Below are positions 27,456 through 63,424 of a stretch of DNA of 64,000 bases, one piece after another. The notes under the pieces are model-generated. The model was not told where the DNA came from. It worked only from the letters and a program-made list of their open reading frames with translations, and made no database searches. Position 1 is the first letter of the stretch. Each line of letters opens with the position of its first letter. The stretch lies in the IMG/VR virus record IMGVR_UViG_3300030103_002259, positions 1-64,000 of that record, one strand, 5' to 3'. The stretch is from a virus. The position numbers and the translations under genes were made by a program.

Positions 27456-30400
27456 TTATAATATAAATGGATATACATTACTTGCATAAACAAACCCACC
27501 ATCATCATATACATATCCGCCTTTCTGATTTCCTTGTATTGGAAGATTACCAGCATTAACACCACCATATCCTGGAGGTGTCCCAGAATTACTAACAGAT
27601 GTAGCACTAGCTTGCAACTTCTCTTTCATCTCTATACACTGTTTTATTTCTGCTTCACTAGTTGCACCTTCATTCTGACATTCTGTTTTTAATTCACCAT
27701 AGCTCTTACGAACAGTTGAACGTTTACCAGTCATATCTCTACCACCTTTAAATGCTAAACTACCTCCATCAGCTGGATTAATATCATACTGCTCATTCAA
27801 TGCATTAAGATTCTGTTGCTTCTGTCTATTTGTAATAGCATTTGTATACAGATTTCTTAAGTTAGTTCTAGCAGCTAACTTAGCATTATCAAACTGTTGA
27901 TTAGCTACAGTGGTTTGATCATACAAGTTCTGACTTATCTGTTGATTAGTAAGTTGTTCTTGATTTCTGATACCAACCTTTTGTTGCTCATTAGCATTAG
28001 CAGCAGCTATGTTATTTACGTTATACTGATTTAATGTATCTGCAGCTTGTTTAGCAGCTTGACCTTGTATACTAGCAGCTCTTGCAGATTGAGCCTGTGC
28101 TCCAGCAAACTGACTAATTGCTTGCGTTTGTATATTAGCCTGTTCAGCTTGTGCTGCAAGCTCTCTAGTTGGATCAGCATATATAGCATCAGGTTCTTCA
28201 AGATCTACTCTTGGCGCCCAAGGCATATATTTTTTAATACCCATTAAATCACCAAAGGCTCCAGTAGTTTTAATTGTATCTTGTAGCCACCATGGAGCTG
28301 GTTCATCTTCTACAAGTATATTTTCATTCTCTTCACATGGTAAACAATCACCTGTTGCAGGGTCCACACCTACATCTATTATACTACCATCTTTTTTCTC
28401 ACATGGACATTTCTTTTTATCCTCTTTAGGATCACATGGACATTTACCATTCTCATCTTTTTCCATATAGAAATCACCATTAGGATCATCACATTGACAA
28501 CCATAATCTACACTAGTTGATTTTATACCTGTAAGTTCTCCAGCAGTAGTGTTACCATATACACTTGCATATCTATTACTACCACGCCCATTTGGATCTA
28601 ATTCTTCAGGCTGTACTATACCATCACCATCTAAATCTAAACTTTCAAAATCATCTATAGGAGATACATTAGTACCAAGATAACCTCTCATTCCAGTTTC
28701 ATCTGGATCACCCTCTTGTTGTTGACCCATAAAGTTTCTAATAGCAAATTGTGTATCTGCATCATAACTACTTGCATTATTCATCATATTAGCATATGCA
28801 TGAAAACCTGCTTGTTGAGCCGCTCTACTATTTTTACCATCACCTAGTTCACCGCTTCCAGAACCCATTTCTAAAGGTTCACCTATAGCAGTTGCTATTT
28901 GACCTAAAGAAATATTATTAGGATTTACTAAATCACCATTTCTATCACGTCTACCATATTCTTCAGCTATAAACTTTTTAGCTGAATTAAATTCTGTTTG
29001 AGTAGTTATAGGTGTACCTGTTTCAGGATTTACTATATCCATACCAGAATTTATACGAGCCTCTACATCAGGCCAACTTCTAAAACCTTTACCACTATTA
29101 CTAAATAATACAGGATCAATTTGTTTAGCTTTAAACATCAAGTTCCTTTTCTGCATCTTCATGAACTGTTCAATTCTTTCATCTGGGTTAAAAGCTCTTA
29201 ATGATGCTTCATTTGCTGTTTTAGCAGCAGCATTTCTATAACCACGAACATCTGATATTGAATTTTCGTATTCTTTATTAAATTGATCTCTAATCTTAGG
29301 GTCTTTAAAACCTTCTTTTAAAAGATAATATTGAATAGCAGCCGCTTTACCAGAAGGAGTTGTGCCAAAATCAGTACCCATAGTTTCTTCATCATAATCA
29401 GGAGTAACCCCTGTTTGATATTTACCTATACTTTTGGTACCATCAGCATTAACTCTAATAATTTTTTTTCCGTCTTGATTTGCTTGCCAAGCTTTTCTTT
29501 CATAATCAGGATCATTAACATTAATTTCTACACCATTCTGTGCTTTAGGTATAGATCTACCTACAGAAGCTTTAGGTGTATCATAAAATGGCATATCATA
29601 ACCACCCATCATCATACCATACATAGCCATAGGCATACCACCATATTGTTTCTCTGATATTTTTGGCGCATCTATACCATATTGTTCTAATCCTTGATAA
29701 AATAAATCTAAATCATTAGACCACTCAGTATTATGAGGACCTTCTGTTAAACCTTCTTCCATTAACCTCACAATACCTTGTAAGTGATCGGGATTATTAT
29801 AATCTTTTACCAGACAATCTAAGCAAAACTTAAATGTGCCATCAGCATTCATCATATCAGGATCCTGATTCCACATGTCAGGATTATTTATAAAGTAATC
29901 ATACTCTCCTCTAGCATAATCATAAAAACTTTGTGGCTCATCTTGAACTTCAGCTTGTTGTACATCAATGCCATTTTGAGCTCTTAAAATTCTTCCACCA
30001 AAAGACATTGATGGTTGTGCAACAGGAGCTTGATTCATTTCTTCTGCTTCAGCAACATCTTCACTCATCTCACCATCTTCTCCACCACCTTCTTTTTCTT
30101 CAACCTTTTTTGTTAATTGTTGATTTACTGCTTTTAACTGAGGGTTAACAATATCAGCCTCCTCAATATTATAGATTTTTGCAGCGGGCTGTGCAACAGC
30201 AGGTAAACCTTGCGGCATACCTTTCATAGACTCTTGTACTAAAGCTAATTCAGCTAGTTTAAGATTATAATTCTTAATCATTAACTCAGCTGTTTTTCTT
30301 GATAACTGATCTGAATCAGGATCTTCTAAAATTTTTCTATACTTATTAATATCATATTGTTTAGCAATCTTAGCAGGAGTTAAAGATTTTTTTTCATTCT

Positions 30401-30764
30401 TACCAAAACGTTTTAAAAGTTTTGGGTCTTTTACTTTCATTGATCTAGTATCACTATAGATAAAAGTATCATCTGGTAAGCTTAAAGGAACACCACCACT
30501 ACTATGGCGTGGACCTTTTATTATTTTATGTTCTGGAATACCATCACCATTCAAATCACCAAGTACAGTTTCACCACCTTCAGCCTCAACATTAGCCTCA
30601 TCTCTAGGTACACTAGTTATAAACTTACTTAAACTTAATGCAGGCTGTTGCATAGACTGAGTACTTCGCCCACCCATTGCAGCATTATCATTATACAAGC
30701 TATAATCTACTTGTTGTCCGACTTTAGCTTTAGGTAATCTTTTTATTCTTACTCTTCTTTTCAT
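27456..30764 (-). CDS. crAss-like structural/cargo protein with EF-hand loop (1102 aa)
   Basis: The start MKRRVRIKRLPKAKVG carries the N-terminal version of the recurring tag. Residues 84-93 (GPRHSSGGVP) and the C-terminal helical part (ELAAQAEQANIQTQAISQFA and NQQFDNAKLAARTN) match conserved segments I recall from crAss-like virion proteins. Two calcium-binding-type loops are visible: DLNGDGIPE near 70-78 and a canonical EF-hand loop DLDGDGIVQPEE at 710-721. A cysteine-rich segment of CxC/CPC pairs follows at about 745-815. Further tags lie at LRAQNG (260-265) and PKAQNG (406-411). The very C terminus is Gly/Tyr-rich. It sits 1 base after the 1219-aa gene. No catalytic site is seen; a Ca-stabilised cargo or scaffold-like protein is the best guess. 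Confidence 0.72.
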   Translation of the reverse strand: MKRRVRIKRLPKAKVGQQVDYSLYNDNAAMGGRSTQSMQQPALSLSKFITSVPRDEANVEAEGGETVLGDLNGDGIPEHKIIKGPRHSSGGVPLSLPDDTFIYSDTRSMKVKDPKLLKRFGKNEKKSLTPAKIAKQYDINKYRKILEDPDSDQLSRKTAELMIKNYNLKLAELALVQESMKGMPQGLPAVAQPAAKIYNIEEADIVNPQLKAVNQQLTKKVEEKEGGGEDGEMSEDVAEAEEMNQAPVAQPSMSFGGRILRAQNGIDVQQAEVQDEPQSFYDYARGEYDYFINNPDMWNQDPDMMNADGTFKFCLDCLVKDYNNPDHLQGIVRLMEEGLTEGPHNTEWSNDLDLFYQGLEQYGIDAPKISEKQYGGMPMAMYGMMMGGYDMPFYDTPKASVGRSIPKAQNGVEINVNDPDYERKAWQANQDGKKIIRVNADGTKSIGKYQTGVTPDYDEETMGTDFGTTPSGKAAAIQYYLLKEGFKDPKIRDQFNKEYENSISDVRGYRNAAAKTANEASLRAFNPDERIEQFMKMQKRNLMFKAKQIDPVLFSNSGKGFRSWPDVEARINSGMDIVNPETGTPITTQTEFNSAKKFIAEEYGRRDRNGDLVNPNNISLGQIATAIGEPLEMGSGSGELGDGKNSRAAQQAGFHAYANMMNNASSYDADTQFAIRNFMGQQQEGDPDETGMRGYLGTNVSPIDDFESLDLDGDGIVQPEELDPNGRGSNRYASVYGNTTAGELTGIKSTSVDYGCQCDDPNGDFYMEKDENGKCPCDPKEDKKKCPCEKKDGSIIDVGVDPATGDCLPCEENENILVEDEPAPWWLQDTIKTTGAFGDLMGIKKYMPWAPRVDLEEPDAIYADPTRELAAQAEQANIQTQAISQFAGAQAQSARAASIQGQAAKQAADTLNQYNVNNIAAANANEQQKVGIRNQEQLTNQQISQNLYDQTTVANQQFDNAKLAARTNLRNLYTNAITNRQKQQNLNALNEQYDINPADGGSLAFKGGRDMTGKRSTVRKSYGELKTECQNEGATSEAEIKQCIEMKEKLQASATSVSNSGTPPGYGGVNAGNLPIQGNQKGGYVYDDGGFVYASNVYPFIL

Positions 30765-30765: not shown

Positions 30766-33700
30766 CTATATAAAATCTAATTCTACCCCATTGGCAAGTA
30801 AATATTCTATTAATTCTTCTGATAACTCATATTCACCATTTTCTTCAAACTGGTCCATGTAACCACCCTCTTGCATAAACCTACCATACTTAGCTGTGTT
30901 CATACCAGTACTATCTTCTTGACCCATTTGATCAAAGTTCTGTAAACCAAGTTGCTTACCTCCAATATCAACCTTATCACCTTTATAAGTTTTAACTGTA
31001 TTAGCATATAAGTTTTCTGGTCTAGTCATCTCATCATTATAATCAGCATAATCATTCTTTCTATTAGACCTAGACTTAAGTCCAGCAATACCTCGTATAC
31101 CAGCTATAGACACATTAGCTAATGCTTCACCATCTGTTACTTTAGTTCTTCTTTTTAATTTGTTTTCAAACATAACCTGTTTACCCTTCTTTTTATTTTT
31201 ATCATTATACTGATAATTATAAAAATCATTTTGGATAGGATCTACAGCTTGATTAGGATCTACAGTAATATTATTAGGTTGTGGATCAGGCATATCTGGT
31301 GTATTATTATTCATAAATGCTCCCATACTACCCATCATGCCTTGATTAGGATCTAGGTTAGTAATTTCTGCATCAAGATTAACTTCCATATTAGGTTGAG
31401 GTGCATTGACACCCATGTTACTAGTAAAACCTCCACTTTGCATAGGATTTCTTTTAGCTCTTCTATCAGCTCTGTCTGACTGTCTCTCACCCCTTCTAAT
31501 TTTTCTTCGCACACTTCCTTTTAAGTCACCATACTTATCTTTAAAACTTCTTTCTGGAATATCAAAATTAATTAACTTTTGAGTAGCTTGATTTCTAGAA
31601 TCTATTTGATTTTCTAGCTCACTAGAATCATCAGATCCAGTAGTATAATAATCAATATACTTTTTAGGCATACCCCTTCTATTAGTTTTAAGAACCTCTC
31701 TTCTCAATGGAGTAAGTTCATTCATAGGACCTGTATAATCAGTTTTAGTTTTTATATAAGGCATTCTACCAAACATCCTATTAGCTGGAAATAACATATC
31801 ACGTAAAGCACCTCTTCTACCACTAAATGTACCATAAGGAACCGTTTGTCTATTATAGTTTATAGTAGCTTTTCTAATAGGGTAACCTTCCCAAGGATCA
31901 ACAGCATTTTTTTCAGCTGCTCCAGCATCCATAAATGCCTTTGCTACCTTGTATGCAGCACCACCTCTTTGTGCCATTGGCACATCTTCCATTTCACCAC
32001 CCTCTTGTTTTATTTTACCTAAAGAAAAATGTGGGGCAACCCAGTCATAAGTAGTTTTAGGCTCTTTTAAACCAAGTCCAAAATTAGACTCAAGCATGCC
32101 TGTTCTAGTAATAGAAGGTAAATCCTTTGGTACTTGATCTGCTGACATACTACCTGGTTTATATTCTAATACTGGATAACCAAAGTCTTGACCAGTTAAA
32201 TTCTGCATATTCTCTAAGTTAGTCATATAATAATCTCTTCTTAATTTAGAAGTATCACCAATAATCTTAGCTTCTGCCTTAGCTATTTCTGCATCATTTA
32301 AACCTTGAAACTTTAAATCATAAATAGCATCATACATCTTTTTACCCCAATACCCATCAGTTAAAAAGTCTTCACCTTGAAGTCTATTATAACCAGTAAA
32401 GATGGGACTTTCAAATATACCATAACGTTCAGGATTCTGCAACATTCTAGCAAAATGACCATCTTGCATTAATTTAGAATCAAGGGTAAGATTATCTGAC
32501 CCTGTACCAAGTGATCCTATAGGTAGTTTACTTATATCAGCCATTTGTAGTTTTGAAGCTTCTGCTAAAGCAGCAGGACTTCTATAGTTATGAGCATATA
32601 ATGAAGGCACAACATTTTTACTTGGTATACCTAAAGATTCAAAACCCATCATACCTTGAGAAGACATACCAGTAGGGTTTTCCATCAGCATTTGAAATCT
32701 CTTTACAGCTTGTTCAGGAGTAAGCTCATTGAAAAAAGATAGATTTGAGTCTGCTCCAAAATCTGTACCATATTGAGCATCTGCCATAGCCCTAACATTT
32801 TCTAAGCTGAGAGGAGCATTAGCATAATCTAAATCAGCAGCAGCACTTTGTAACGGCCCACGACCTTGTGATATAGCTCTTAATATACCTTCCTTAGATT
32901 GCATACCAGGATAAATTACTTGAAGATCTTCATCTAATACATGACTAGTTTTTGCAGAATTTAATTTTTTCTTTAATACATTATCATTTGCAGTAGTCAT
33001 AAAATTTTTATCTCTAATCAAACCTCTAATTTGCTGCAATCTTTTTAATTCATCTTTAGGAATTTTATTAAAACTTTTAACAGGTTGTAAATCTTTATAA
33101 ACTTTTAAAGCATTTTTTATAATCTTACCTCTCTGAGCTCTAGGCATTTCAGAATTTTCTTCTTGAACTAAACCATCTGCCATTTCCATAACTTTAGGGT
33201 CACCTAATTTATTAGCATTATTATAAATCCCTTCACCCAATGCTTTTGTAGAAAGATTTTTTAAACTTTTTGTAAAATCAGACTTTCTTTTACTAATCTC
33301 ATTTGTTAAAGTATCCTGTCTATTACCAGTACCTATAGTTTCTGAATCACCACCTTCTTGTTTTTTAAGCAATGACTTGACAAATTTTCCTTTTGTCATA
33401 CCACCATATGACATCATACTTAAATCATCCCAACTAATATTATCTGGACTAATATATTCAGATAATGTTGGAAATCTTATATCCATTATAGGACTTTGCA
33501 TACCATCCATATACTGATCAAAGGACATTTCTGGCTGCGGCTCTTCAGCTTGGCCACCTTCTTGTAATCTATTGTTAAAATAAGTTCTATTACTATATCT
33601 TCTTTTACCTCGACCTTTATTGCCAAATGCATTAGCAAAGAAGTTATTTACCGCACTATTACGAGCACGTTGTCTTTTCATGAGAGGAGCTCTTTGTGAT

Positions 33701-34425
33701 TCTGTAGGTGTAGATTCTGTGGGTGTAGGTATAGATGCAGGTGGTTGTTCAGATATAGGAGGCGACAATGGTGGTGGTGAAATACTTGGACCACTAGTAC
33801 CAGGGCCTATATTTGCACTTGCACCACTTTGATAAGCACCTCTATTACTTAACATACTTTGTCTTAACTTCTGCTGTAACATCTCATTCTCATCACTAGA
33901 TGGTTCAAAAGATAAATTAGGATCAAATTTAATTGAACCAACTCCACCACCTTGTTGCATAGATAACTCAGAAGTTTCATCTTGTGCCATCATTTCTTCT
34001 TGATCACCCTCAGAGTAACCATCTTCTTGATAAGGTTGTTCTGACTGAGTTAAGTCTGTCATTTCTTCTGGTATGCTAGCAGACTGTGGAGCAGTTTGAT
34101 CTTGACTTTGATCTGATACTTTCTTAGCCATCTTTTCAAAGTACTGTGGATCAAATAAACCAGCCTCAATCATTTTACTTATTACCTCTGACATCAAAGC
34201 ACCTGCCATTTTTTTCTCCATACCTGATGTTAAAAGATTTGCATAAACTTCTTCAGGTTTTATATTTGCACGAAGCTGTGCAAATACATTTCTAGCATAA
34301 GTATCTCTTATAGCACGTTCTGTAATACCGCCTCCCATTTGAAATTTAGACAAAAACTTTTTTGTCTTATTTATATAAGCACCTTTATTATCTGGTGACT
34401 TATAAATCTTTACTCTTTTTTTCAT
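30766..34425 (-). CDS. Modular cargo protein with repeated Q-x-G-G tags (1219 aa)
   Basis: It begins MKKRVKIYKSPDNKG, like its neighbours. Tags are spread along it: FQMGGG near 28-33, MQQGGG near 155, MPRAQRG at 427-433 followed by a basic helix (KIIKNALKVYK), PMAQRGG at 816-822 followed by AAYKVAKAFM, and FMQEGG just before the acidic C-terminal module (about 31 residues, ending ANGVELDFI). The block between the two central tags (about 434-812) holds a globular domain that appears related to one in the next upstream giant (shared G-S-L-x-T, P-x-F-x-G-Y and PHF landmarks). Basic RRxxR runs fill the 820-1010 region. No known enzyme motif is recognised. A candidate promoter lies just upstream of its start. 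Confidence 0.68.
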   Translation of the reverse strand: MKKRVKIYKSPDNKGAYINKTKKFLSKFQMGGGITERAIRDTYARNVFAQLRANIKPEEVYANLLTSGMEKKMAGALMSEVISKMIEAGLFDPQYFEKMAKKVSDQSQDQTAPQSASIPEEMTDLTQSEQPYQEDGYSEGDQEEMMAQDETSELSMQQGGGVGSIKFDPNLSFEPSSDENEMLQQKLRQSMLSNRGAYQSGASANIGPGTSGPSISPPPLSPPISEQPPASIPTPTESTPTESQRAPLMKRQRARNSAVNNFFANAFGNKGRGKRRYSNRTYFNNRLQEGGQAEEPQPEMSFDQYMDGMQSPIMDIRFPTLSEYISPDNISWDDLSMMSYGGMTKGKFVKSLLKKQEGGDSETIGTGNRQDTLTNEISKRKSDFTKSLKNLSTKALGEGIYNNANKLGDPKVMEMADGLVQEENSEMPRAQRGKIIKNALKVYKDLQPVKSFNKIPKDELKRLQQIRGLIRDKNFMTTANDNVLKKKLNSAKTSHVLDEDLQVIYPGMQSKEGILRAISQGRGPLQSAAADLDYANAPLSLENVRAMADAQYGTDFGADSNLSFFNELTPEQAVKRFQMLMENPTGMSSQGMMGFESLGIPSKNVVPSLYAHNYRSPAALAEASKLQMADISKLPIGSLGTGSDNLTLDSKLMQDGHFARMLQNPERYGIFESPIFTGYNRLQGEDFLTDGYWGKKMYDAIYDLKFQGLNDAEIAKAEAKIIGDTSKLRRDYYMTNLENMQNLTGQDFGYPVLEYKPGSMSADQVPKDLPSITRTGMLESNFGLGLKEPKTTYDWVAPHFSLGKIKQEGGEMEDVPMAQRGGAAYKVAKAFMDAGAAEKNAVDPWEGYPIRKATINYNRQTVPYGTFSGRRGALRDMLFPANRMFGRMPYIKTKTDYTGPMNELTPLRREVLKTNRRGMPKKYIDYYTTGSDDSSELENQIDSRNQATQKLINFDIPERSFKDKYGDLKGSVRRKIRRGERQSDRADRRAKRNPMQSGGFTSNMGVNAPQPNMEVNLDAEITNLDPNQGMMGSMGAFMNNNTPDMPDPQPNNITVDPNQAVDPIQNDFYNYQYNDKNKKKGKQVMFENKLKRRTKVTDGEALANVSIAGIRGIAGLKSRSNRKNDYADYNDEMTRPENLYANTVKTYKGDKVDIGGKQLGLQNFDQMGQEDSTGMNTAKYGRFMQEGGYMDQFEENGEYELSEELIEYLLANGVELDFI

Positions 34426-34482: not shown

Positions 34483-37400
34483 TTACATATCCTCAACAAT
34501 ATACCCTTGTTTAACTAAGTTATCTATTTCTTTTTGAGTTAATTCTGTTTCTACAGAACCTCCCTTTTGAAACTCAGGTATACCACCATATTCAAGAATA
34601 CCTTTCTTTCTTAAAAATTGTTTAAACCTACCATCCATTTTTTTTCTTTTGCCAAACAAACCTTGACCTTTTCTAATAGAATTATTATATCTTCTTTTAC
34701 CTCCTAAACCTTGACCACTACCAGACAAAGCTCCTTTAGAAAATTGAAGACCTCTTCTTATAGGTTTATACGGGATTCTAGATGGGTTTGGATTTATATC
34801 TGATGGCATTACACTTTCACCTTCTGTATCCCAGATTTCAGTTACTGTAAAGTCTTCAGGATCTATATCTTCTCTTGGCTCTGGTGTATAATCAAATGTT
34901 CCTGGTTTTATTTTATCAAGAGGTACTATTTCAATTTCTGGTTCAGGCTCTGGTTCTGGTTCTGGTTCTGGTTCAGGAATTACCTCTTCAGGTATTTCTT
35001 CTACTATAAGTTCTTCTTCTGGTTCTTCTATAAATTCATCAAAATCATCAAAGAAAAGATTGTGACAACCCCCTTCAGCCTTACACATATACTTTTTATT
35101 TATATCCCATTTACCAGGAACAACTGCAGGACTAAAGTTTCCTTGATAATAAGGGTTAGGTCTATACTTTACACACTCTACACCGTTCCAAACTTCACCT
35201 GGACCACAATCTTTAACATTACCACCTTTACTTAATAATGGCCTCTTCTTACCTTCAGGGAATCTAAAATCTGTTTTCATTACACCAAAGTGAGGTAGTA
35301 TAATTGAATTCTCTCGCATCATAAAGTCATATGGATTAGTAATGTATGATGAAACGGGATCCTGAGAATTCAATGTTTGAACAATAGGTAACCTATCTCT
35401 TTCAGGAATGCCTTGTTTATCATACATGTCATTCAATTGTTTTTGAAGATATTGAGACCTAATATCTAATTGATCACTGCTTCTTATACCTAAAGAGTTA
35501 TCCATTAATAAACTAGCTAAGTCACCCATTGAGTTAGCTGGGTAATAACCTAAAAACATAGGGTAAGGAAGTACATTTGGTAATTTACCTGGTATTGTAG
35601 GATCTGTACCTTTAGTAGCTCTAAATATTCTACCCAGCTGCATAGCATAAGAATCGTCAGATGTATCTAAAGAACCTGTGACAATAGTATTTGGCTTTGC
35701 ACCATAAAAACCTCGATTAAGTCTTTGTTGAAAAGCGTTAAACAATTCTCTATCATTACCGTATCTATTTCTAAATAATGAACCGACTGCTTGTTTTATT
35801 TGAAGATTCCTATGGAAATCTGTCATATCATTAAATCTACTTAATGGTTGTTCACCAGGTAACAGAGTTGAAGAATCTAATGCAGAACTAGGCGTCTGGT
35901 TTAAGCTACCACCATCAAGAGTACCTAATGTTTCCATCTGTCTTATAGCTTCATCACCACCAATAGTCATCGCTGGTACATATTCAGGTTTTGTAAGATT
36001 TCTACTAGTAGTATGTTGTATTGCTTGATCCAAAATGTCTATAAGCTCTTCTTTAGATTTTTCTTGTATTAGCCTTCTTGCTTTATTTATTCTCTCTTGA
36101 CTAGGTTCTAAATAACCCTCACTATTAGGAACCATGAGTCCTTTGTTAAAATGTGAGTTTGTTAATAAACCTGCTACCTCATTTTTAGTAATATTTGAGT
36201 TCATCAAAACCTTCCGTAATTTTTTACGGTTAGCATTCATTTGTATATCTTGAAATCTTTTTATTTCTGGATTTGTAAAAGTTCCTGATACATTAGTTGG
36301 TACACCAGTATAACCATAACCTATCATCAGGTCAGTAAGAGCCTTATACTTATCAAAAGTTCTCTGATCCATCATAGGTGAAACAATAGTATTTGGTAAT
36401 AGTCTAGGAAGTTCTTCTTTAAATTTAGACAATGTTTTTATAATCCTTCCTGCTTGACCTTTAGGTAATGTTTTTATTTTTCCATTATGAGTTCTTGCAT
36501 ATCTATTATTTTCATCTTCCATACCAGGTATTAAAGTTCCTGAATATGATTTACCTTTAAAGTTCCAAGATACATTACCACCCTTTTGAAAATCTTCAGG
36601 CTGCTCTAATTCAGGTTGCATTCTATAATTAGTAGTAAGCTCTTCTCCTGGTTCTAGATCTCTATTAGCAAAAACATATCTTTCATTTCCAATTTTTTTA
36701 CTAAACATTGTTGGGGAATCTTCATTATGATTATGCATCCTACCCAATTTAGATGCGGGTTGGTCATCTCTATGAGCTAAACCAATCATATCACCTTTTT
36801 TAAAACTTCTAGTAGTAAACATACCATCACCAGCACCTTTTATTTTAGATTTAGATTGAGCTATCCCGCCATCTTTTACCATTGGTATTTCAAGCACTCT
36901 ATTACCTGGAAATTCATAGTTCATATCTGGCATCATCATCTTGCTATTACCTAAATTATCTATACCCATAACTGGAAAATCAACATCTTCCATGGTTATA
37001 TTATTTGAGTCAATAATATTAAAAGGATTATTTATATCAGGACTACCTGACTTATAACCTTCTGTAGAATAAATACCACCTTTTTTAAAATTTTTTATTG
37101 TCTGTTTAGCAGTATTCTTAAAATCTTTTATATTTTTTTCAGCGTCATTATAAAGCTCTGCACCTTTAGTAAAAATCCCTTCCATAACTGGCATTGCTAT
37201 ATCATCAAACGATAATGGTAACATAGCTGATTCTAATGCAACACCACCAAAAGCTGGATTATTAAAATTACCACTCATATAATTTTTAGCACCTTCATTT
37301 AAACCCGTAGCTGAGTTGACTGTAAACGGTTTAAATTTAAAATTTCTAAGAGCTTTTGGATTCAGTAATTTATCAGCAGATCTAACACTCTTTTTCAAAC

Positions 37401-38838
37401 CATCTGCTAAAAACTTTTTACCACCAAGCGCTCTACCAAAAGTTAAATTCAGTGCAGGTGCTAAAAAATCTGATGCGCCAATATCTGCATCAGGTGTATT
37501 ATAAGAATAGGCTGCAATATTACCCAAACCTTTAAGACCATCTGCAAACAATTGCGCAGCTCTAATTTGACCCAAGTAGGGTGTAATATAAGAAGCCCCA
37601 TCCAAACCTTGCATCATCATATTACCTTCCCAAATACCAGCGGCAGGATCCTCCTCTTGCATACGGTCAGTATTACCGTATTTAGATAAATGACCAAGTG
37701 CATCAACAGGGTGTAAAAACTTAGTAAGCGTAGAAGCTCTTCTATAAGGATTTTTAATATTCCAAGATGCATTATTTCTAGCTGACTCTTCATCACTTAT
37801 ACCTCTTATATGATGACCTCTATCAAACCACTGACCATCTGGACCCAGAGTCATGCCAGCATCCAGCATTTTTTGAGCCTCAATTAATTCTAAATCTGCA
37901 TCATAACCACCTTCTACATCTTTAAGAATTGCAATCTTTTGAGCTTTAGAGAGACTACTATCATTAGCAATTTTTCTTTGAAAATCAATAAGTTTCATAC
38001 CCCTATCTTTAAGATCACCACTTGAACTTTGTAAGTTAGCAGCTTCTTCTTCAAGATCTAATGTTCTTTCACGATAAGGGGCAAAAGTATCTGATGTAGC
38101 AACATTTCTCTCATAATCAGATAAATTACTATCAAATTCAGACTGAGCTTCCTTAGCTCTTTTATCTTCTTCTTTAGCAGCATCTGTATAAATATCTGTA
38201 ATATCATTAGTCAGACCAGAACCAGTATAATATTTAAGGATTTCATCTTGGGTTTCATCTGTGTAATCACCAAAATATTTTTCTAATGATTTAGCATCCT
38301 TACCCATTCCTTGTTTGAGTAACTTATCAATTATTTCTTCTTTAGTTTTACCTTCCTGTAATTCTTTAAGAATTGTTGTTTTATTTCCTAATTCATAATT
38401 AGCTTTATGTAGATCAAAAATATTTTGAAAAGATTTAGAAAGAAGATTCTTTTTACTAATACCCATATTCTCAAACTCTTTAGCTGTAGCACCTCTATTA
38501 TAAATAGCTTCTGCAATAGAATTTGGATCATATGCCTGGAAACCTGAAACCTGCTCACTACCGTCATCACCTTTAGTATAATTTGGAGAAAGAAAAACAC
38601 CAAGCACAGGAAAGCCATCTTCCCCTGGACGGTTTATATATTCAGAAAAACCATCCATAGTTGGTTGTACATCAGAGTCTAAAGAACTTGAGTATTCATT
38701 ATATAGGCGTTCTATAAATTTATTATCTAAACCTATAGCATCAGTATAAGTTTTACCTTCACCATCTTGATAAGGTTTGACCTCAAACCTACCTCCATTC
38801 TGCATTCTAGGTAATGCTGTTATTCTATACTTTTTCAT
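34483..38838 (-). CDS. Modular cargo protein with SET methyltransferase-like domain (1451 aa)
   Basis: Start MKKYRITALPRMQNGG overlaps the upstream stop by 4 bases and carries the tag at 9-16. Residues about 660-740 look like a SET domain: GAGDGMFTTRSFKKGDMIG, then NHNEDSP (703-708) in the place of the NHS-x-PN motif, then a GEELTTNY end with catalytic-position Tyr 738. It is bounded by a GG site before and FQKGG after. A small strand-rich segment then runs to LPKGQAG (791-797) plus a basic helix. The following block shares landmarks with the 1219-aa protein. Near 1288-1301 is an Glu-Pro repeat. The end is FQKGG plus the acidic module ending GYIVEDM. SET enzymes methylate lysines on proteins; the substrate here is unknown. 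The N-terminal 550 residues are helical and unassigned. Confidence 0.72.
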   Translation of the reverse strand: MKKYRITALPRMQNGGRFEVKPYQDGEGKTYTDAIGLDNKFIERLYNEYSSSLDSDVQPTMDGFSEYINRPGEDGFPVLGVFLSPNYTKGDDGSEQVSGFQAYDPNSIAEAIYNRGATAKEFENMGISKKNLLSKSFQNIFDLHKANYELGNKTTILKELQEGKTKEEIIDKLLKQGMGKDAKSLEKYFGDYTDETQDEILKYYTGSGLTNDITDIYTDAAKEEDKRAKEAQSEFDSNLSDYERNVATSDTFAPYRERTLDLEEEAANLQSSSGDLKDRGMKLIDFQRKIANDSSLSKAQKIAILKDVEGGYDADLELIEAQKMLDAGMTLGPDGQWFDRGHHIRGISDEESARNNASWNIKNPYRRASTLTKFLHPVDALGHLSKYGNTDRMQEEDPAAGIWEGNMMMQGLDGASYITPYLGQIRAAQLFADGLKGLGNIAAYSYNTPDADIGASDFLAPALNLTFGRALGGKKFLADGLKKSVRSADKLLNPKALRNFKFKPFTVNSATGLNEGAKNYMSGNFNNPAFGGVALESAMLPLSFDDIAMPVMEGIFTKGAELYNDAEKNIKDFKNTAKQTIKNFKKGGIYSTEGYKSGSPDINNPFNIIDSNNITMEDVDFPVMGIDNLGNSKMMMPDMNYEFPGNRVLEIPMVKDGGIAQSKSKIKGAGDGMFTTRSFKKGDMIGLAHRDDQPASKLGRMHNHNEDSPTMFSKKIGNERYVFANRDLEPGEELTTNYRMQPELEQPEDFQKGGNVSWNFKGKSYSGTLIPGMEDENNRYARTHNGKIKTLPKGQAGRIIKTLSKFKEELPRLLPNTIVSPMMDQRTFDKYKALTDLMIGYGYTGVPTNVSGTFTNPEIKRFQDIQMNANRKKLRKVLMNSNITKNEVAGLLTNSHFNKGLMVPNSEGYLEPSQERINKARRLIQEKSKEELIDILDQAIQHTTSRNLTKPEYVPAMTIGGDEAIRQMETLGTLDGGSLNQTPSSALDSSTLLPGEQPLSRFNDMTDFHRNLQIKQAVGSLFRNRYGNDRELFNAFQQRLNRGFYGAKPNTIVTGSLDTSDDSYAMQLGRIFRATKGTDPTIPGKLPNVLPYPMFLGYYPANSMGDLASLLMDNSLGIRSSDQLDIRSQYLQKQLNDMYDKQGIPERDRLPIVQTLNSQDPVSSYITNPYDFMMRENSIILPHFGVMKTDFRFPEGKKRPLLSKGGNVKDCGPGEVWNGVECVKYRPNPYYQGNFSPAVVPGKWDINKKYMCKAEGGCHNLFFDDFDEFIEEPEEELIVEEIPEEVIPEPEPEPEPEPEPEIEIVPLDKIKPGTFDYTPEPREDIDPEDFTVTEIWDTEGESVMPSDINPNPSRIPYKPIRRGLQFSKGALSGSGQGLGGKRRYNNSIRKGQGLFGKRKKMDGRFKQFLRKKGILEYGGIPEFQKGGSVETELTQKEIDNLVKQGYIVEDM
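34936..34977 (-). repeat. Glu-Pro codon repeat (hexanucleotide tandem)
   Basis: A near-perfect tandem of a six-base unit encodes alternating Glu-Pro about residues 1288-1301 of the SET-containing giant protein, inside a wider acidic Pro-rich linker. Such EP tracts form stiff extended spacers. The unit repeat could vary in copy number by slippage. Confidence 0.7.
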
Positions 38839-41800
38839 ATTTCCTCTATTGTATAACCTTGTTTTCTTAATTCTTCTACCATATCTTCTGTAACCTCATC
38901 TCCTAATTCTAATACACCACCCTTTTGAAAACCTAAAAGATCACCTCCAGTATTATCTCCATCATTAAATAATTGATCAGCTAAAAAACCCCTAGTTCCC
39001 CATTTAAAAGTATTTTCAAGAAGTGGTTGTAATCCCGCACCTTTTAAACCCGCCTCTAAATTATCTTTGTCTAGCTTTTTATAATTATTACTAAACCATT
39101 TTTTTCTATATACATTAAGATCTTCTAACGGAACTTTATCTAATAGACCACGATCAATTTTATCAAAAGGAGCTACACCATAATTTTCAACACCACCTAC
39201 ATGATGAGACCAATCATATTTAGATTTATTTGGTAGGTCAGTTTCTACAGCAAATATACCTCTGTAATTATTATTAGGCTCATCACCCTTACCAAAAAAA
39301 GGAGTATCTACTGTAACACCACTTTTCATTAATATTGGAGCAGGAGCTTTAGCGCCTTTTTGTTTTATTAAATCTTGTAATCCTTTTTTATTTCCAATTT
39401 TTCTATAGAAATGACTTCCTGGAGTAAGTTCATTTTTAGTAAATGCAGTTAAGGGAGCACTTATTGGATTTTTTATAGCACGACCTATATTCTTTAGTAT
39501 AGACCCACCTCTTTGTAATTTAGGTTTATCATTATCATTCATTAAACCAGGTAATGCAAATGGTATTGCTAAACCAGGTAAATATCTAAGAGCTTGATAT
39601 TTTTTTTCTTTTGGTACTCCTTTTTTAAAAAATGAATTTAACGGAACTCCTGTACCTTCCATTTCAAGCATGCCATCTAAAGTTGAATTTGATGGGTTAC
39701 GTAATTCACCAAGAGCCCACTCACTTATCCTCTTATCTCTTTCAGCTATATCTAAAGTTTTACCTGTATTAGGATCTACTTTAAAAGCTTCTTTTACAGT
39801 TTTATCATTTGTCCACTCATCATATATTCGTTTTCTAACAACCATTAACTCTGAGTGTAATTCATTAGGAGACCCAATCCAATCTTTATCAGGCATTACT
39901 TCTTTAAAGAACCTACCTATATTAGTATTTTCATTTGGATAAAAGTATCCTTTACCAGAATCAAATTCTGCTAACACATTACCAAACCCTCTATTTAGCA
40001 TACCTAATCCTTGAGAAGTATGAGCAGCTTCATGTAAAGCTATATCAGTTATTTCACTACTTGGATATCTATATAAACCTATACCTGGATTTGTAACTGA
40101 TAGATTTAAGCTTGATTTATTAACACCAGCTGTATCATTTTGTAAATAGTTTTTAATTAAAAACTTTTTTTCTGGGTCAGTAAATTTACTTGATAAAATA
40201 TCTGTAATACCTTGTGGACGTAGTATATTACGTGTTTTAACCAAAGGGTTTTCTAAATTTAAACCTGGTGTGTTGCCACTATATATAAGAGTATTATCTA
40301 AAGTAAGTCCATCACCTAAACCTAAACGACCCAATCCTTCAAAGTCACCACTACCATCACCTCTAAATTCTTGAGCAAAATATTTATCTTGTCTATTCTG
40401 AGGTCCAGAGAACTCAAATATATCTAATATTTTATCTGATATATCTTCTCTTAATATTTTACCAAATTTAGGATCTACTTCATAAAACCATTTATCATTA
40501 AAATTAACACCTTCTTGTATTGCTAAAGATGCTTCTAAATCTGCAGCTTTTTTTTGGGAAGGTGTCAAAGGTAAAACCTCACCAAAACTTCTTTCTCCTT
40601 TTGTAATATCTTGAATGGCACGTGTAAGACCTTTCTTAGTGTTATCTATCTTATTACTAATAACCTTGCTTGTTAACTTTTTTATACTAGGCTGCACCTC
40701 TTTTACAAGCTTTGCATTTTTTGAGATTTTGTTAATAGCCTTAGATAAAGACGCACCTCTTTGAGCTTTAGGCAACCCTCCATCTTTTAGTTTTTTCCTT
40801 TTATTTCTTTTATCTTCAAATGCAAAAGGTAACCCTAAAGTTAAAGGCAGTAAAGATTTATATATATTAGAATTAGACATATCAAACATTCCATCATTTC
40901 CTATTGCTGATTTAACTCTATTACCAGGTCTATTGTTTATCATAGTTACATTACCAAAGTCATTATACAAAAGAGGATCTCCATCAAAAACATTATTTAA
41001 CTTAATATTATCAATATCATTTTCTATCATGTACTTCATGATTTTATCAGTTGTTGTTCCTTCTGGAAACTGAGAACGTAAATCTTTTACAACATCATTA
41101 AGTTCTTTAGCAGTAGAATAGTCTTGTTCACCTAAACGAGGATCAATATCACTAAGATTTAATGAGTCCCAAACTTGATAATTTACATCTAAATCTGCAG
41201 ATTTTGATGACATTGGATAGTAAAGTTCATTTACATTTCCCACCAACTTTCCATTTAATGTAGCATATTGTCGTGCTACTTCTCTATCTGTAGATGTAAA
41301 AAGTGGTTGATGAAGATCTTCAAGATTCTTCATAGATCCTCTATATGTAGAACCAGCCCCTTGAGGAAATGCTTTTTTAAAGTTCTTACTCTGCTGTTGT
41401 ACAAATTGCTCAGGAGTACCTTTAAATAGACTACCATCTGCATTTTTCATCCAAGTATCATTTTGTTTTGTATTATATTCAATAGCACGATACTCTTCAA
41501 TTAATGGTTTATTATTAGGTATGTTCTTGTTCCACTTACCCCAATCTATTTGTGATTTAAAATTTTTAACAGGTAGTTTTTTTGCAGCTTTGGCTAATGC
41601 AGCACCAAGTTGAGCTTTAGGTAAATCTTCTACTATGTAACCACCGTCTACATACTTTTGTATTTCTTCATCATCTAATTCAAGTTCTATTGGACCACCC
41701 CTCTGTCTAATTAAATCTAAGTTAGGTTCTGCTGCTTTCCACCATTTTTCTCCAAATGGTATACTAAAAGGTAAGTCAACAAAATGCTCTCTTGCACCCA

Positions 41801-56771: not shown

Positions 56772-56782
56772 ATTGATAAAAT

Positions 56783-58396: not shown

Positions 58397-58403
58397 CCTA
58401 AGA

Positions 58404-59272: not shown

Positions 59273-59274
59273 AT

Positions 59275-59769: not shown

Positions 59770-59776
59770 AGTTATT

Positions 59777-59842
59777 TTAATAATCCCAGTAAATAAAGAT
59801 TTGATCATTCTCTTCTTCTGGATCTTTAAAAGTTTTGTTCAT
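59777..59842 (-). CDS. Possible 21-aa acidic micro-gene
   Basis: An ATG at 59842 opens a 21-codon frame (begins MNKTFKDPEEEND, ends WDY) that stops at 59779-59777, seven bases before the preferred start of the Arg-rich gene. It fills a gap of about 90 bases in an otherwise gap-free cluster and is acidic among basic neighbours. Chance is a real possibility at this length; it might instead be an upstream leader ORF that couples translation. Confidence 0.25.
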   Translation of the reverse strand: MNKTFKDPEEENDQIFIYWDY

Positions 59843-59859
59843 ATATCAATATACAAAAA

Positions 59860-60147: not shown

Positions 60148-60163
60148 AATTTAAAACATTCTT

Positions 60164-60790
60164 TTAAAATCGTAATTTTCTTTTAACTTTATTTTTAATT
60201 CTTTTTAGTTTAGCTTTAACTTTACCGTTACCGCCAATATTCAAGCCGTTACCACTACGTTTTGGACCAGACATACATTTACCCTTAACTACCTTACCAC
60301 CTCTACAACCACCACCTCTAACTGCAGCACCTCCTAGTTGCATATACTGACCACCTAATTTTTGTTCTTTAATGTCATTAAAATACCCTAGTACTGCTGC
60401 GGGGTTTGTCATATTACCACCCATTTGCATTTTGCTTCTAATTTTTTTAGAATTCTTTTTAAAAGATTCAGTATCAGCCATTTTAGGAGATGGACCTAAA
60501 CCTGACTTTCCATAAACCATTTTTATAGCCTTAGTTTTTATAGGATCCTTTAATGTTTTACGTTTTTTACCCATTGGTCTAGCTATAGACATACCCATCT
60601 GAGCTTTAGGTAATTTAGGTTTAGTGTGACCATAACCCTTCTTTTTCATACGGGTATGATCAGCCATAACTTTTGCTTTATAACCCTTTCCTGTTTTAGG
60701 ATCATACATCATATGAGGTTTAAACTTCTTCTTAGCAGCACTCTTTTTAGCACCACCTTTACTATATAAACTTTTTGGCATTGTATTCAT
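60164..60790 (-). CDS. Basic protein with LPKAQMG tag (208 aa)
   Basis: The protein starts MNTMPKSLYSKGGAKKSAAK (a second ATG at codon 4 is possible) and overlaps the upstream gene by one base. The tag LPKAQMG lies at residues 60-66, followed by a basic stretch (SIARPMGKKRKTL). A second Gln-Gly-Gly element occurs at MQMGGNMTNPAAVLGYFND, which parallels the N terminus of the Arg-rich neighbour. The C-terminal part is Gly/Lys-rich (GGGCRGGKVVKGKC, then KAKLKRIKNKVKRKLRF). No fold is recognised. The two tags divide it into three short basic segments, so it resembles a miniature of the tagged giants. Confidence 0.6.
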   Translation of the reverse strand: MNTMPKSLYSKGGAKKSAAKKKFKPHMMYDPKTGKGYKAKVMADHTRMKKKGYGHTKPKLPKAQMGMSIARPMGKKRKTLKDPIKTKAIKMVYGKSGLGPSPKMADTESFKKNSKKIRSKMQMGGNMTNPAAVLGYFNDIKEQKLGGQYMQLGGAAVRGGGCRGGKVVKGKCMSGPKRSGNGLNIGGNGKVKAKLKRIKNKVKRKLRF

Positions 60791-61059: not shown

Positions 61060-61268
61060 TATCTTTTCTTTTTGCTCTTACCAGCTTTTCTTTTTCTACA
61101 CTTAGCAATCATACCACTAGCATAAGCAGAAGGAAATACTTTATGAGCTCTTTTAGCTGCATAGTAACAAGAGTCTTTTTTACTCTTAGTTTTTTTCTTT
61201 TTAGATCCTCCTTTTCTAAAGAATTCTAAAATTTCACCGTCCGTATTTATTCTACTATAATTAGGCAT
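61059..61268 (-). CDS. Small basic protein with PSAYASG core (69 aa)
   Basis: After a short N terminus with GEILEFFRKGG, a Lys-rich linker leads to DSCYYAAKRAHKVFPSAYAS then GMIAKCRKRKAG. The C-Y-x-x-x-K-x-x-x-x-V-F-P-S-A-Y-A-S-G-x-I-x-K-C-R-K pattern is a recurrent small phage motif with two conserved Cys. As far as I know its role is not established. The N-terminal EFFRKGG part is shared in pattern with two other genes of the cluster. It is coupled to the downstream gene by a one-base overlap. Confidence 0.7.
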   Translation of the reverse strand: MPNYSRINTDGEILEFFRKGGSKKKKTKSKKDSCYYAAKRAHKVFPSAYASGMIAKCRKRKAGKSKKKR

Positions 61269-61270
61269 AA

Positions 61271-61459
61271 CTATAAGCTTCTTCTTAATGAGGCACCTCT
61301 GATAACTTTACCTTTGCCACATGAGCCACCATACTTTAATTGTTGTCCTTGAATAGTTCTTGGATTATTACTATATCTAGCCATAGTCTTACCTGGGTAA
61401 GGATTTTGACCTCCATTTTTCATTTTGTGGGCACCGCCACATTTCATACATTTTGGCAT
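61271..61459 (-). CDS. Small Cys/Gly-rich protein with LRRS tail (62 aa)
   Basis: The N terminus MPKCMKCGGAHKMKNGG has a C-x-x-C-G-G knuckle. The middle repeats Gln/Gly/Tyr elements (KYGGSCGKGKV). The end is RGASLRRSL, the first of four adjacent genes ending in a G-x-[SN]-L-R-R-S tail. It is one of the least conserved-looking products here and I do not recognise it as a family. The shared tail with its upstream neighbours shows common ancestry or a common signal. Confidence 0.6.
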   Translation of the reverse strand: MPKCMKCGGAHKMKNGGQNPYPGKTMARYSNNPRTIQGQQLKYGGSCGKGKVIRGASLRRSL

Positions 61460-61469
61460 ATCTTATATT

Positions 61470-61772
61470 TTATTTATTTTTTATACTTCTTCTTAGTGAT
61501 CCACCTTTAATTAATTTTGGTTTAGATTTATTACTTGATTTAGGAGATCGTGATACTTCATATAATACTGTACCATAAGGATCTGTCTCTAAAATCTTAT
61601 ATTGTACGTCTGTGATACCTCTTTTTTTAAGAGCACGTCTTCTTGCATTATAAGCACTTCTACTAGGCGCCACTCTCTTACCCAAAACAGGTGAATAATC
61701 TTTACTTTTCTTAGCCGCTTTCTGAACTGCTTTAGCTATACCACCTTTCTGATATTTTGTAAGGTGTTTCAT
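61470..61772 (-). CDS. Tagged small basic protein with LRRS tail (100 aa)
   Basis: The protein starts MKHLTKYQKGGIAKAVQKAA, an N-terminal tag followed by a basic amphipathic helix. It continues with SRSAYNARRRALKKRGITD and a short strand-like part (VQYKILETDPYGTVLYEVS), and ends KGGSLRRSIKNK. The start follows the pattern of the next upstream gene (MKKYQKGGIAKLAAKAA). No known fold. It is probably one of a family of tandemly arisen small virion-associated peptides. Confidence 0.62.
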   Translation of the reverse strand: MKHLTKYQKGGIAKAVQKAAKKSKDYSPVLGKRVAPSRSAYNARRRALKKRGITDVQYKILETDPYGTVLYEVSRSPKSSNKSKPKLIKGGSLRRSIKNK

Positions 61773-61774
61773 AA

Positions 61775-62155
61775 TTAATGCTTTTTACTTCGTCTTAATG
61801 ACCCACCTTTCATCATCTTCATACCACCATACTGAGCATAGCCCATTTTATTACGAACATCTGTTGGTAATGATCTTAGACCATTAAACTTTTTACCAGC
61901 TGGAACACTTTTCAAAGAACCGCCTGATTTAAATTTAGGTTTTTGAAGTTCAGGATACTTCATGCGATTCATATTGTCACCTTTTTTTACGTCTACCCCA
62001 AACATTCCAGGCTTATATACATTCAGTGATTTACGTTTAAGTTTCAAAGAAGCAGGTGTTTTTCCAGCTCTTTTTACCTTTGCAAGTTTTCCAGTTGTTT
62101 TTTTAGCAGCCTTTGCAGCAAGTTTTGCAATACCACCTTTTTGATACTTTTTCAT
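61775..62155 (-). CDS. Tagged small basic protein with LRRS tail (126 aa)
   Basis: It starts MKKYQKGGIAKLAAKAAKKT and ends MKGGSLRRSKKH, nearly the same two ends as its neighbours, with a divergent middle (ASLKLKRKSLNVYKPGMFGV, MKYPELQKPKFKSGGSLKSV). Two further Gly-Gly elements (KSGGS and YGGMKMMKGGS) lie toward the C terminus. It overlaps nothing and leaves 2 bases to each neighbour. Composition and tandem placement suggest a capsid-internal or DNA-binding peptide; function unknown. Confidence 0.62.
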   Translation of the reverse strand: MKKYQKGGIAKLAAKAAKKTTGKLAKVKRAGKTPASLKLKRKSLNVYKPGMFGVDVKKGDNMNRMKYPELQKPKFKSGGSLKSVPAGKKFNGLRSLPTDVRNKMGYAQYGGMKMMKGGSLRRSKKH

Positions 62156-62157
62156 AG

Positions 62158-62526
62158 TTAATGTTTTCTAGATCTTCTTAAATTTTTACCTCTGATAACC
62201 CCACCTGATCTATATAACTTCATAGTAGGATTATTTTCTAACGCAGCTTTAAACATATCAAGAGCATCTTGATTAGTAATATTAGGATTCTTTAAAAAAC
62301 TCTTTACTTTCTTAGCATCACCAGAACTAATTACACCACGTTTTTGCATAGCCTGCCTCAAACCTTCTTTAGCATATTGGTCTGTATCATACTTTTTTCC
62401 TTTCCTACCTATAGTTGTAGTTCTCTCAGGTAATTTAGGTTTAGGTACTTTAACTTTCTTTTTTGCAGCTTTAGCAGCACTACTTATAATCTTACCCCTT
62501 TGTGCTTTTGGTAAATACTTTTTCAC
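62158..62526 (-). CDS. Tagged small basic protein with LRRS tail, GTG start (122 aa)
   Basis: I choose the GTG at 62526-62524, one base after the upstream stop, because it gives MKKYLPKAQRGKIISSAAKA, in register with the MKKYQKGG starts of the two downstream genes. A longer form from ATG at 62598 would overlap the upstream gene by 71 bases and place 24 unrelated residues before the tag. After the basic helix the middle part is more ordered-looking (YDTDQYAKEGLRQAMQKRGV, then KSFLKNPNITNQDALDMFKA). The end is IRGKNLRRSRKH. Same family layout as the next two genes. Confidence 0.65.
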   Translation of the reverse strand: MKKYLPKAQRGKIISSAAKAAKKKVKVPKPKLPERTTTIGRKGKKYDTDQYAKEGLRQAMQKRGVISSGDAKKVKSFLKNPNITNQDALDMFKAALENNPTMKLYRSGGVIRGKNLRRSRKH

Positions 62527-62527
62527 C

Positions 62528-63424
62528 TTATAAAGATTTTGGAGAGTTATTACCTCTTTTTCTACTTCTGCTAATTTTTCTAACAATTTTTTTAGCACTC
62601 ATAGGTCTTCCACCACCTTGGTTTTTCTTAACAACACCTTTTCTAGTTACTCTCTGAGTTAATCCAGATGGAGAAGTTATAGTTCTACCTCGTTGAGCCT
62701 TTGTAAGTTGAGTTCCAGATCTTTTAGAAGGAAGATTTTTTCCACCTGGTATAGGTCTTGTAACTTTAGCTTTACCTTTCCCAGTAGCTTTTTTTCCTGC
62801 TGCTTTTGTTGCTCTTTTAAGATCTTTTTTAGTTCTAGGCATTCCAGGAGGCATCATACTTGTACTTGATTTTTCCTTTTTAAGTGACTTTCTTAATACT
62901 TTTTTCATTCCTGGTGTAAGCTTTCCAATAGAACCACCTTTTTGCATTTTAGTTGTCTTAGCATATTTTTTTACAGCTTTTTTAGCACTAACAGGTCTTC
63001 CCGCACCTTGATTCTTTTTAGCTACGCCTTTTCTATTTACTTTAGTTTTTAGTCCAGACTTAGAAGTTACAGTTCCGCCTTTTTGCATTCCAAGGGTAGC
63101 AAGTTTTGTAGATGATTTTCTAAGAGGAGATACCTTACCACTAGCTTTAGCTCTACTTTTACCTGAAGCTATTTGTAAAGCTTCATTAAGTTTTGATCTC
63201 ATATTAGCTCCAGTTGATCTTAAACCACCTTTAGTTAAGCTTTTTTTAGCAGCAGCAGTGCTTTCCATCTTTCTCCTAATTGGAGCCTTAGAAGTAGATT
63301 TTCTACCTGGAGTACCTTTACCTTTTCCAGCAGCTTTTACAAGCCTTGTCATTTTTGCTAATCCTTTTTGGCCTTTTGGTAATCTTTTTTTTGCACCACC
63401 ATAACCATACTTTTTCATTGCCAT
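62528..63424 (-). CDS. Lys/Arg-rich protein with internal duplication (298 aa)
   Basis: The protein is extremely basic throughout. Tags occur at LPKGQKG (15-21, followed by the basic helix LAKMTRLVKAAGKGKG), MQKGG (113-117), MQKGG (160-164) and TKAQRG (241-246). A segment of about 45 residues after the second and the fourth tag is duplicated (RKGVAKKNQGAGRPVSAKK versus RKGVVKKNQGGGRPMSAKK), containing an AT-hook-like G-R-P core. Histone- or protamine-like DNA binding is plausible from composition. The cluster of small tagged genes directly downstream may have arisen from pieces of this kind of protein. No family recognised. Confidence 0.65.
   Translation of the reverse strand: MAMKKYGYGGAKKRLPKGQKGLAKMTRLVKAAGKGKGTPGRKSTSKAPIRRKMESTAAAKKSLTKGGLRSTGANMRSKLNEALQIASGKSRAKASGKVSPLRKSSTKLATLGMQKGGTVTSKSGLKTKVNRKGVAKKNQGAGRPVSAKKAVKKYAKTTKMQKGGSIGKLTPGMKKVLRKSLKKEKSSTSMMPPGMPRTKKDLKRATKAAGKKATGKGKAKVTRPIPGGKNLPSKRSGTQLTKAQRGRTITSPSGLTQRVTRKGVVKKNQGGGRPMSAKKIVRKISRSRKRGNNSPKSL
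62561..63088 (-). repeat. Internal protein duplication in the 298-aa basic protein
   Basis: Copy A (63088-62945, residues 113-160) and copy B (62698-62561, residues 243-288) share tag, T-[VI]-T-S-x-S-G-L, R-K-G-V-[AV]-K-K-N-Q-G and G-R-P-[VM]-S-A-K-K elements in the same order and spacing. They are separated by an unrelated Lys/Pro-rich block. Confidence 0.8.

What the first reader, a model, noticed from the sequence alone, without database searches (positions are those of the whole stretch)
29532..63385. Recurring L-P-K-x-Q-x-G(G) tag across giant cargo proteins and small basic proteins
At least a dozen copies are visible, for example at 63362-63382, 62494-62514, 60593-60613, 41604-41624, 40755-40775, 39504-39524, 38791-38814, 36448-36468, 33127-33147, 31960-31980 and 29532-29549. 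They lie between recognisable domains or at N termini. The typical form is acidic or neutral sequence, then LPKAQRG, then a basic amphipathic stretch (AALAKAAKK, KIIKNALK, KIISSAAKAAKK). Placement at domain borders in otherwise unrelated proteins suggests one common use: cleavage site of a maturation protease, capsid-targeting signal, or both. I know of no published description. Recurrence is seen; function is inference.
Basis: partly seen in the sequence, partly recalled or inferred. Interest (0 to 1): 0.88.

Follow-up and report, generated by a model that had tools for sequence, protein, structure and literature searches.

The report
Shared tag on phage virion-cargo proteins
Across a family of crAss-like viruses of bacteria, proteins apparently packed in the virus particle for delivery to the host carry the same short peptide tag at their ends and between their parts, probably to load or arrange them; the tag is real and seemingly undescribed, but its function is not proven.

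Summary
The motif is real and far above chance. LP[KR]xQxG occurs 8 times in the window's proteins against 0.01 expected. One copy, in the muzzle protein, is unrelated. The window is most of an 83-kb crAss-like phage record. In relatives the LPxAQxG form occurs 92 times in proteins coded after the muzzle gene (0.6 expected), 15 times in small basic proteins coded after the capsid gene (0.07 expected), and never in 313,000 residues of structural, polymerase and non-virion proteins. Inside the giant proteins it follows a conserved ~25-residue unit, [G/D]YIELELTDEEIEEYRKGGYIVEE; together they make a ~40-residue linker between interchangeable enzyme modules. The same unit ends 68 of 172 complete cargo proteins. 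The motif also opens nearly every copy of a third conserved cargo protein. Codon choice shows constraint at protein level, not recent duplication. Best explanation: a docking or loading tag on proteins packed for ejection, kept at module borders as modules are swapped. Cleavage is possible but unsupported: one prohead protease family was tested properly and not found, and the motif is degenerate and disordered. Polymerase-type cargo lacks the tag. No published description was found. Virion mass spectrometry of a cultured relative would decide.

The parts
63362..63382 (-). N-tag LPKGQKG near the N-terminus (aa 15) of small basic protein 62528-63424
62687..62707 (-). Internal copy LTKAQRG in the same small basic protein
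62494..62514 (-). N-tag LPKAQRG + KIISSAAKAAKKK of small basic protein 62158-62598; likely true start GTG at 62526 (MKKYLPKAQRG)
62161..62205 (-). C-terminal tag GGVIRGKNLRRSRKH of the same protein
62132..62155 (-). N-tag MKKYQKGG of small basic protein 61775-62155
61778..61807 (-). C-terminal tag GGSLRRSKKH of small basic protein 61775-62155
61740..61763 (-). N-tag LTKYQKGG of small basic protein 61470-61772
61473..61505 (-). C-terminal tag GGSLRRSIKNK of small basic protein 61470-61772
60593..60613 (-). LPKAQMG in small basic protein 60164-60790
38835..43211 (-). Cargo protein 1 (1458 aa) directly after the muzzle gene; mosaic, contains HEAAH (~aa 1058-1062)
41625..41705 (-). Internal C-tag mini-domain QRGGPIELELDDEEIQKYVDGGYIVED, joined directly to the next N-tag
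41604..41624 (-). N-tag LPKAQLG + AALAKAAKK (second half of the composite linker)
40755..40775 (-). Internal N-tag LPKAQRG + ASLSKAINK
39504..39527 (-). Internal N-tag variant KPKLQRGG + SILKNIGRAIK
38838..38927 (-). C-terminal C-tag of cargo 1, QKGGVLELGDEVTEDMVEELRKQGYTIEEI
34483..38838 (-). Cargo protein 2 (1451 aa), SET domain
38791..38814 (-). N-terminal N-tag LPRMQNGG of cargo 2
36448..36468 (-). Internal N-tag LPKGQAG + RIIKTLSKFK
34486..34569 (-). C-terminal C-tag of cargo 2, QKGGSVETELTQKEIDNLVKQGYIVEDM (54% identical to the internal C-tag of cargo 1, E 4.5e-4)
30766..34425 (-). Cargo protein 3 (1219 aa) with nine QxGG matches
33127..33147 (-). Internal N-tag MPRAQRG + KIIKNALK
31960..31983 (-). 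Internal N-tag variant VPMAQRGG + AAYKVAKAF
30769..30873 (-). C-terminal C-tag of cargo 3, QEGGYMDQFEENGEYELSEELIEYLLANGVELDFI
27456..30764 (-). Conserved last protein of the cargo block (1102 aa), positional counterpart of crassvirus C1/gp45; homologous to a structural protein of Cellulophaga phages
30717..30764 (-). N-terminal tag MKRRVRIKRLPKAKVG of that protein
29532..29552 (-). Internal N-tag IPKAQNG of the same protein

Best explanation
The repeated peptide is a virion-loading or docking tag on proteins stored for ejection. Ejected proteins of this crass-like family are built from interchangeable enzyme modules. Modules are separated by a ~40-residue element: a 25-residue acidic mini-domain (C-tag), then a disordered LPKAQxG(G) stretch (N-tag). 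C-tags also form C-termini and N-tags form N-termini, so the internal element reads as the end of one cargo unit fused to the start of the next. A virion partner (scaffold, capsid wall, portal or tail lumen) would recognise the tags, gathering and stringing out cargo and the small basic proteins during assembly. Shown: the element, its conservation, its restriction to these gene classes and its place at module borders. Inferred: presence in the virion, recognition by a partner, and loading as the function.
For: Enrichment only in these classes: LPxAQxG-type 92 vs 0.6 expected (cargo), 15 vs 0.07 (small basic), 0 observed vs 0.37 expected in 313,000 residues of controls (also 58). Unrelated proteins share only the tags. 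C-tag ends 68 of 172 complete cargo proteins and is internal 54 times; 39 of 49 distinct internal copies are followed within 20 aa by GG or LPxxQxG, vs 16% of random positions. N-terminal KVRIKxLPxAxxG in most of 54 homologues, also when ~415 residues separate it from its domain. Homology breakpoints between cargo proteins fall within 20 aa of the motif about twice as often as random positions (0.204 vs 0.103; 0.245 vs 0.093). Same codons at shared residues 59% vs 53% expected, so constraint is mainly at protein level. Precedents: T4 CTS and the P1 DarB N-terminal packaging signal, sufficient for a reporter (PMC9024508). In crAss001 gp45 the ordered portal-bound segment 425-552 starts at AFGG and the barrel helix 214-245 follows AYGGPLE.
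Against: RNA-polymerase-type proteins, packaged in crAss001 (PMC10172136), lack the tag, so it is not needed for all cargo. No virion proteomics exists for this phage. Concordance of motif variant between cargo and small basic proteins within a genome is weak (z 2.7; non-motif control z 1.9). crAss001 gp45 is not significantly enriched for GG or QxGG over its own composition, so the structural parallel is only suggestive. No binding partner is identified.
Confidence: 0.5

Rival explanations
1. Cleavage site: a phage or host protease cuts at the motif (for example after Q or at G-G), releasing individual effectors from the giant proteins and trimming the small basic proteins.
For: Placement at borders and termini. 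The internal element equals a natural C-terminus (GYIVEEL-end) joined to a natural N-terminal tag. The motif part is predicted disordered. T4, SPN3US and P1 cut packaged head proteins (PMC10052503, PMC9024508). 26 of 60 cargo loci carry HExxH zincin motifs, and an autoprocessing role was proposed for such domains (PMC5512222).
Against: No prohead protease S78 in 26 genomes, with working controls; S77 also silent but its control was silent too. The motif is highly degenerate even within a genome. Conservation extends over 25 residues upstream. HExxH was not seen in more than half of the loci.
Confidence: 0.22
2. Passive linker: flexible, easily unfolded connectors that let big proteins thread through the tail, and shared seams where modules recombine, with no specific partner.
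For: Module shuffling with breakpoints at the motif. Disordered prediction. Threading of partly unfolded cargo is proposed for crAss001 (PMC10172136).
Against: Does not explain tags at extreme N- and C-termini or in unrelated small basic proteins, nor 3-4 bits per position in the mini-domain. DNA-level identity is close to codon-usage expectation, which argues against recent recombination seams.
Confidence: 0.2
3. Signal acting after injection, for example a membrane- or nucleic-acid-binding tag: the basic helix after the motif anchors effectors to the host membrane or phage DNA.
For: Basic amphipathic stretches follow many copies in the window, and the small proteins are very Lys/Arg-rich.
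Against: In relatives the downstream stretch is much less conserved and often not basic, and the C-tag is acidic.
Confidence: 0.08

Closest known systems
Phage P1 DarB N-terminal packaging signal (Dar system)
   Same: Short N-terminal signal on a giant multi-domain packaged protein, sufficient to load a reporter (PMC9024508)
   Different: Single N-terminal signal. Here tags recur internally and at C-termini, in many unrelated proteins, in phages with no S78-type protease found
Phage T4 capsid-targeting sequence of internal proteins and SPN3US/phiKZ propeptides
   Same: Short N-terminal targeting element on packaged proteins (PMC9024508, PMC10052503)
   Different: Those are removed by a prohead protease (AXE for SPN3US gp245). 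Here the motif differs and no such protease was found
Polyvalent proteins (Iyer et al. 2017)
   Same: Giant multi-domain phage proteins mixing peptidases, peptidoglycan hydrolases and other enzymes, likely packaged (PMC5512222)
   Different: No shared inter-module linker or terminal tag turned up in the passages consulted
Crassvirus cargo protein C1 (gp45) of crAss001
   Same: Position after the muzzle; disordered protein with docked segments (PMC10172136)
   Different: No significant sequence match and no PDB fold match to the window's C1-like protein; no LPKAQ motif

Membership tests
Crassvirales-type virion module | Muzzle and ring proteins | tested here: met
   Pfam crAss_MUZ, Ring_1, Ring_2 above cut-off
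Crassvirales-type virion module | Conserved order MCP, small basic genes, muzzle, cargo, giant RNAP-type genes | tested here: met
   Same order in 12 genomes; RNAP identity of the last genes rests on position only
T4/SPN3US/P1 targeting sequence removed by a prohead protease | Encoded prohead protease | tested here: inconclusive
   S78 absent in 26 records with positive controls; S77 search had no positive control; other folds not excluded
T4/SPN3US/P1 targeting sequence removed by a prohead protease | Cleavage motif AXE (SPN3US gp245) | tested here: not met
   Motif is LPxAQxG(G)
T4/SPN3US/P1 targeting sequence removed by a prohead protease | Tag necessary or sufficient for packaging | not testable with these tools
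   Needs a reporter or deletion assay
Polyvalent proteins | Many mixed enzymatic domains in one phage polypeptide | tested here: met
   SET, DUF6782, lysozyme, SLT, VanY, Amidase_2 in cargo 1 of relatives; SET in cargo 2 of the window
Crassvirus C1 (gp45) | Homology of 27456-30764 to gp45 | tested here: inconclusive
   hhalign not significant; no PDB fold hit (the library keeps one chain per sequence and may lack the portal-bound copy); clear fold match to phi4:1 structural protein S0A572, E 1.6e-5, and HMM match to phi17:2

The most novel reading that the evidence does not exclude
A portable two-part loading code in crass-like phages: any protein given the C-tag mini-domain and/or the LPKAQxG N-tag is recruited into the virion by one receptor, and the phages evolve by stringing enzyme modules between copies of the code.
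Probability: 0.35. Interest if true: 0.82.

Novelty: new variant of a known kind. Interest (0 to 1): 0.62.

Why it matters
How crass-like phages select and arrange the megadaltons of protein they pack and inject is unknown. A family-wide tag turns this into a direct test, allows cargo to be predicted from sequence alone, and marks module borders in mosaic injected proteins. If portable, it would be a short address tag for loading chosen proteins into phage particles.

Tried and rejected
Single-protein searches of viral contigs with cargo 1 and muzzle found nothing; alignments did. Recent duplication of a DNA cassette: rejected, codons at shared residues match only slightly more than usage predicts. 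LPKDQNG in the muzzle: part of the muzzle family, not the tag. Zincin in cargo as the general processing protease: only 26 of 60 loci have HExxH. Prohead protease S78 and S77: none found. Within-genome co-variation of motif variants as proof of a trans-acting partner: signal weak, with a compositional component. Homology of 27456-30764 to crAss001 gp45: not shown. AlphaFold of the linker gave one confident helix only, so no fold search was made with it. Spread to cellular genomes: of the exact DNA pattern for KGGYxVEE, 47 of the viral matches lie in tag context on reading (two more look the same but fail the script's strict filter), against none credible in 84,980 species genomes. Resemblance of GGSLRRS to encapsulin cargo peptides: recalled only, not tested.
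Full report
Setting. The window is bases 1-64000 of an 83,391-base virus record. It carries crassvirus muzzle and ring proteins. The rest of the record adds genes read as major capsid protein, scaffold-like protein, portal and terminase from their order and their relatives. Relatives are plentiful: 199 capsid-protein and at least 569 muzzle relatives in IMG/VR. Twelve genomes share one gene order: capsid protein, a cluster of small basic proteins, tail genes, muzzle, two or three 'cargo' giants, a conserved C1-like protein, then giant proteins in the place of the RNA polymerase genes of crAss001.

Observation. All cited motifs are present. LP[KR]xQxG: 8 vs 0.01 expected; QxGG: 28 vs 4.9. One of the eight lies in the muzzle, recurs in muzzle relatives and is set aside. 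The remaining copies lie in unrelated proteins: blastp among the window's cargo and small basic proteins gives no match with E below 0.01 except between C-tags. At residues shared between copies the same codon is used 59% of the time against 53% expected from codon usage, so the similarity is not a recent DNA duplication.

What the element is. In relatives the motif is the second half of a composite. Aligning 49 distinct internal copies gives [G/D]YIELELTDEEIEEYRKGGYIVE[E/D][I/L], with 3-4 bits at the Ile, Tyr, GGY and VE positions. It is followed within 20 residues by GG or LPxxQxG in 39 of 49, against 16% of random positions in the same proteins. Frequent second halves are ELPKAQxG, DISVPxLTKAQKGG and EIDNYQDGG. 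The same mini-domain forms the extreme C-terminus of 68 of 172 distinct complete cargo proteins, with two flavours: GYIVEEL(D) in the first cargo gene and ANGGQVEYL in the second. The motif also forms the N-terminus of the C1-like protein, KVRIKxLPxAxxG, in most of 54 homologues; in two genomes it stays at the N-terminus although about 415 residues separate it from the conserved domain. In the small basic proteins it appears as LPKAQxG or KxQxGG, and GG lies near the C-terminus in 54 of 210 proteins against 20 expected. In two relatives the first cargo gene ends in or close to VKIKSLP, so the same motif can also lie at a gene's end.

Specificity. [LIMV]P[KREQ]A[QKR]xG: cargo 92 vs 0.6 expected, small basic 15 vs 0.07, control proteins 0 vs 0.37 in 312,982 residues. 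In the 12 genomes QxGG is 62 vs 14 in cargo and 18 vs 1.8 in small basic proteins, but 7 vs 20 in structural, 11 vs 11 in polymerase-type and 19 vs 14 in other proteins. Caveats: relatives share ancestry, so counts are not independent events; gene calls are mechanical; many loci are cut. An exact DNA pattern for KGGYxVEE found the element in 47 viral stretches by reading the translations (two more look the same but fail the script's filter) and in no credible case in 84,980 species genomes.

Modules. Cargo 1 of relatives contains SET, DUF6782 metallopeptidase, lysozyme, SLT, VanY and amidase domains. Cargo 1 of the window matched only short stretches even in genomes with about 90% identical capsid protein. 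The same SLT-type module follows the linker at residue 382 in one protein and about 1351 in another. Alignment breakpoints between cargo proteins fall within 20 residues of the motif in 20-25% of cases against 9-10% for random positions, with a peak at the motif. AlphaFold gives one confident helix in the mini-domain and low confidence over LPKAQ. The C1-like domain is confident (pLDDT above 90) but its N-terminal tag is not.

Mechanism. The tag is shared by proteins with nothing else in common. They are encoded in two separate parts of the virion gene region, and their counterparts in crAss001 or Cellulophaga phages are cargo or annotated structural proteins (PMC10172136). This favours recognition by one partner. 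Known parallels are the T4 capsid-targeting sequence and the 9-30-residue packaging signal of P1 DarB, which suffices for a reporter (PMC9024508). I therefore favour loading or docking (0.5). Cleavage (0.22) fits the border placement but has no enzyme: S78 was not found in 26 genomes with working controls, S77 was also not found but without a positive control, and HExxH zincins occur in only 26 of 60 loci. The motif is also loose even within one genome. Passive linkers (0.2) do not explain termini and small proteins. A direct structural hint, weak: in crAss001 gp45 the ordered portal-bound segment begins at AFGG and the barrel-bound helix follows AYGGPLE, but gp45 is not significantly enriched for such motifs and homology to the window's protein was not shown. 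The polymerase-type proteins lack the tag, so other loading routes must exist.

Novelty. 'LPKAQ' occurs in no paper of the library, and searches on crassvirus cargo found no description of a shared tag. The library lacks most subscription papers and all preprints.

Noticed in passing
59860-63424: Cluster of about ten small Lys/Arg-rich genes, including DUF5872 (60790-61059) and DUF6321 (59860-60147); several end in GGSLRRS or a similar tag. Relatives carry similar clusters ending in xGGxxKxKKK.
   Followed up: partly
38835-43211 and relatives: HExxH motifs are strongly enriched in cargo proteins (37 vs 1.7 expected), suggesting frequent injected metallopeptidases.
   Followed up: partly
34483-38838: SET-domain stretch in a phage cargo protein, also found in cargo 1 of several relatives.
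   Followed up: no
579-6521: LysM-like stretch in a giant protein at the polymerase-type end of the gene block.
   Followed up: no
62158-62598: The listed GTG start overlaps the upstream gene; GTG at 62526 gives MKKYLPKAQRG and a start parallel to the neighbouring small genes.
   Followed up: yes
L087, L088 (G001:52601-55975 and 55978-60525): A close relative uses its own repeated junction, LQDGGELPKHNxRGIVK, in place of LPKAQRG.
   Followed up: partly
L003 (Leptolyngbya phage Lbo-JY46) 14868-18358: A cultured cyanobacterial phage carries both the N-tag (MKIRIIGLPKAQIG) and the C-tag (QQGGYNLGEEIDLSPEEVAKLIELGYDFEVV-end), making it a practical test system.
   Followed up: partly
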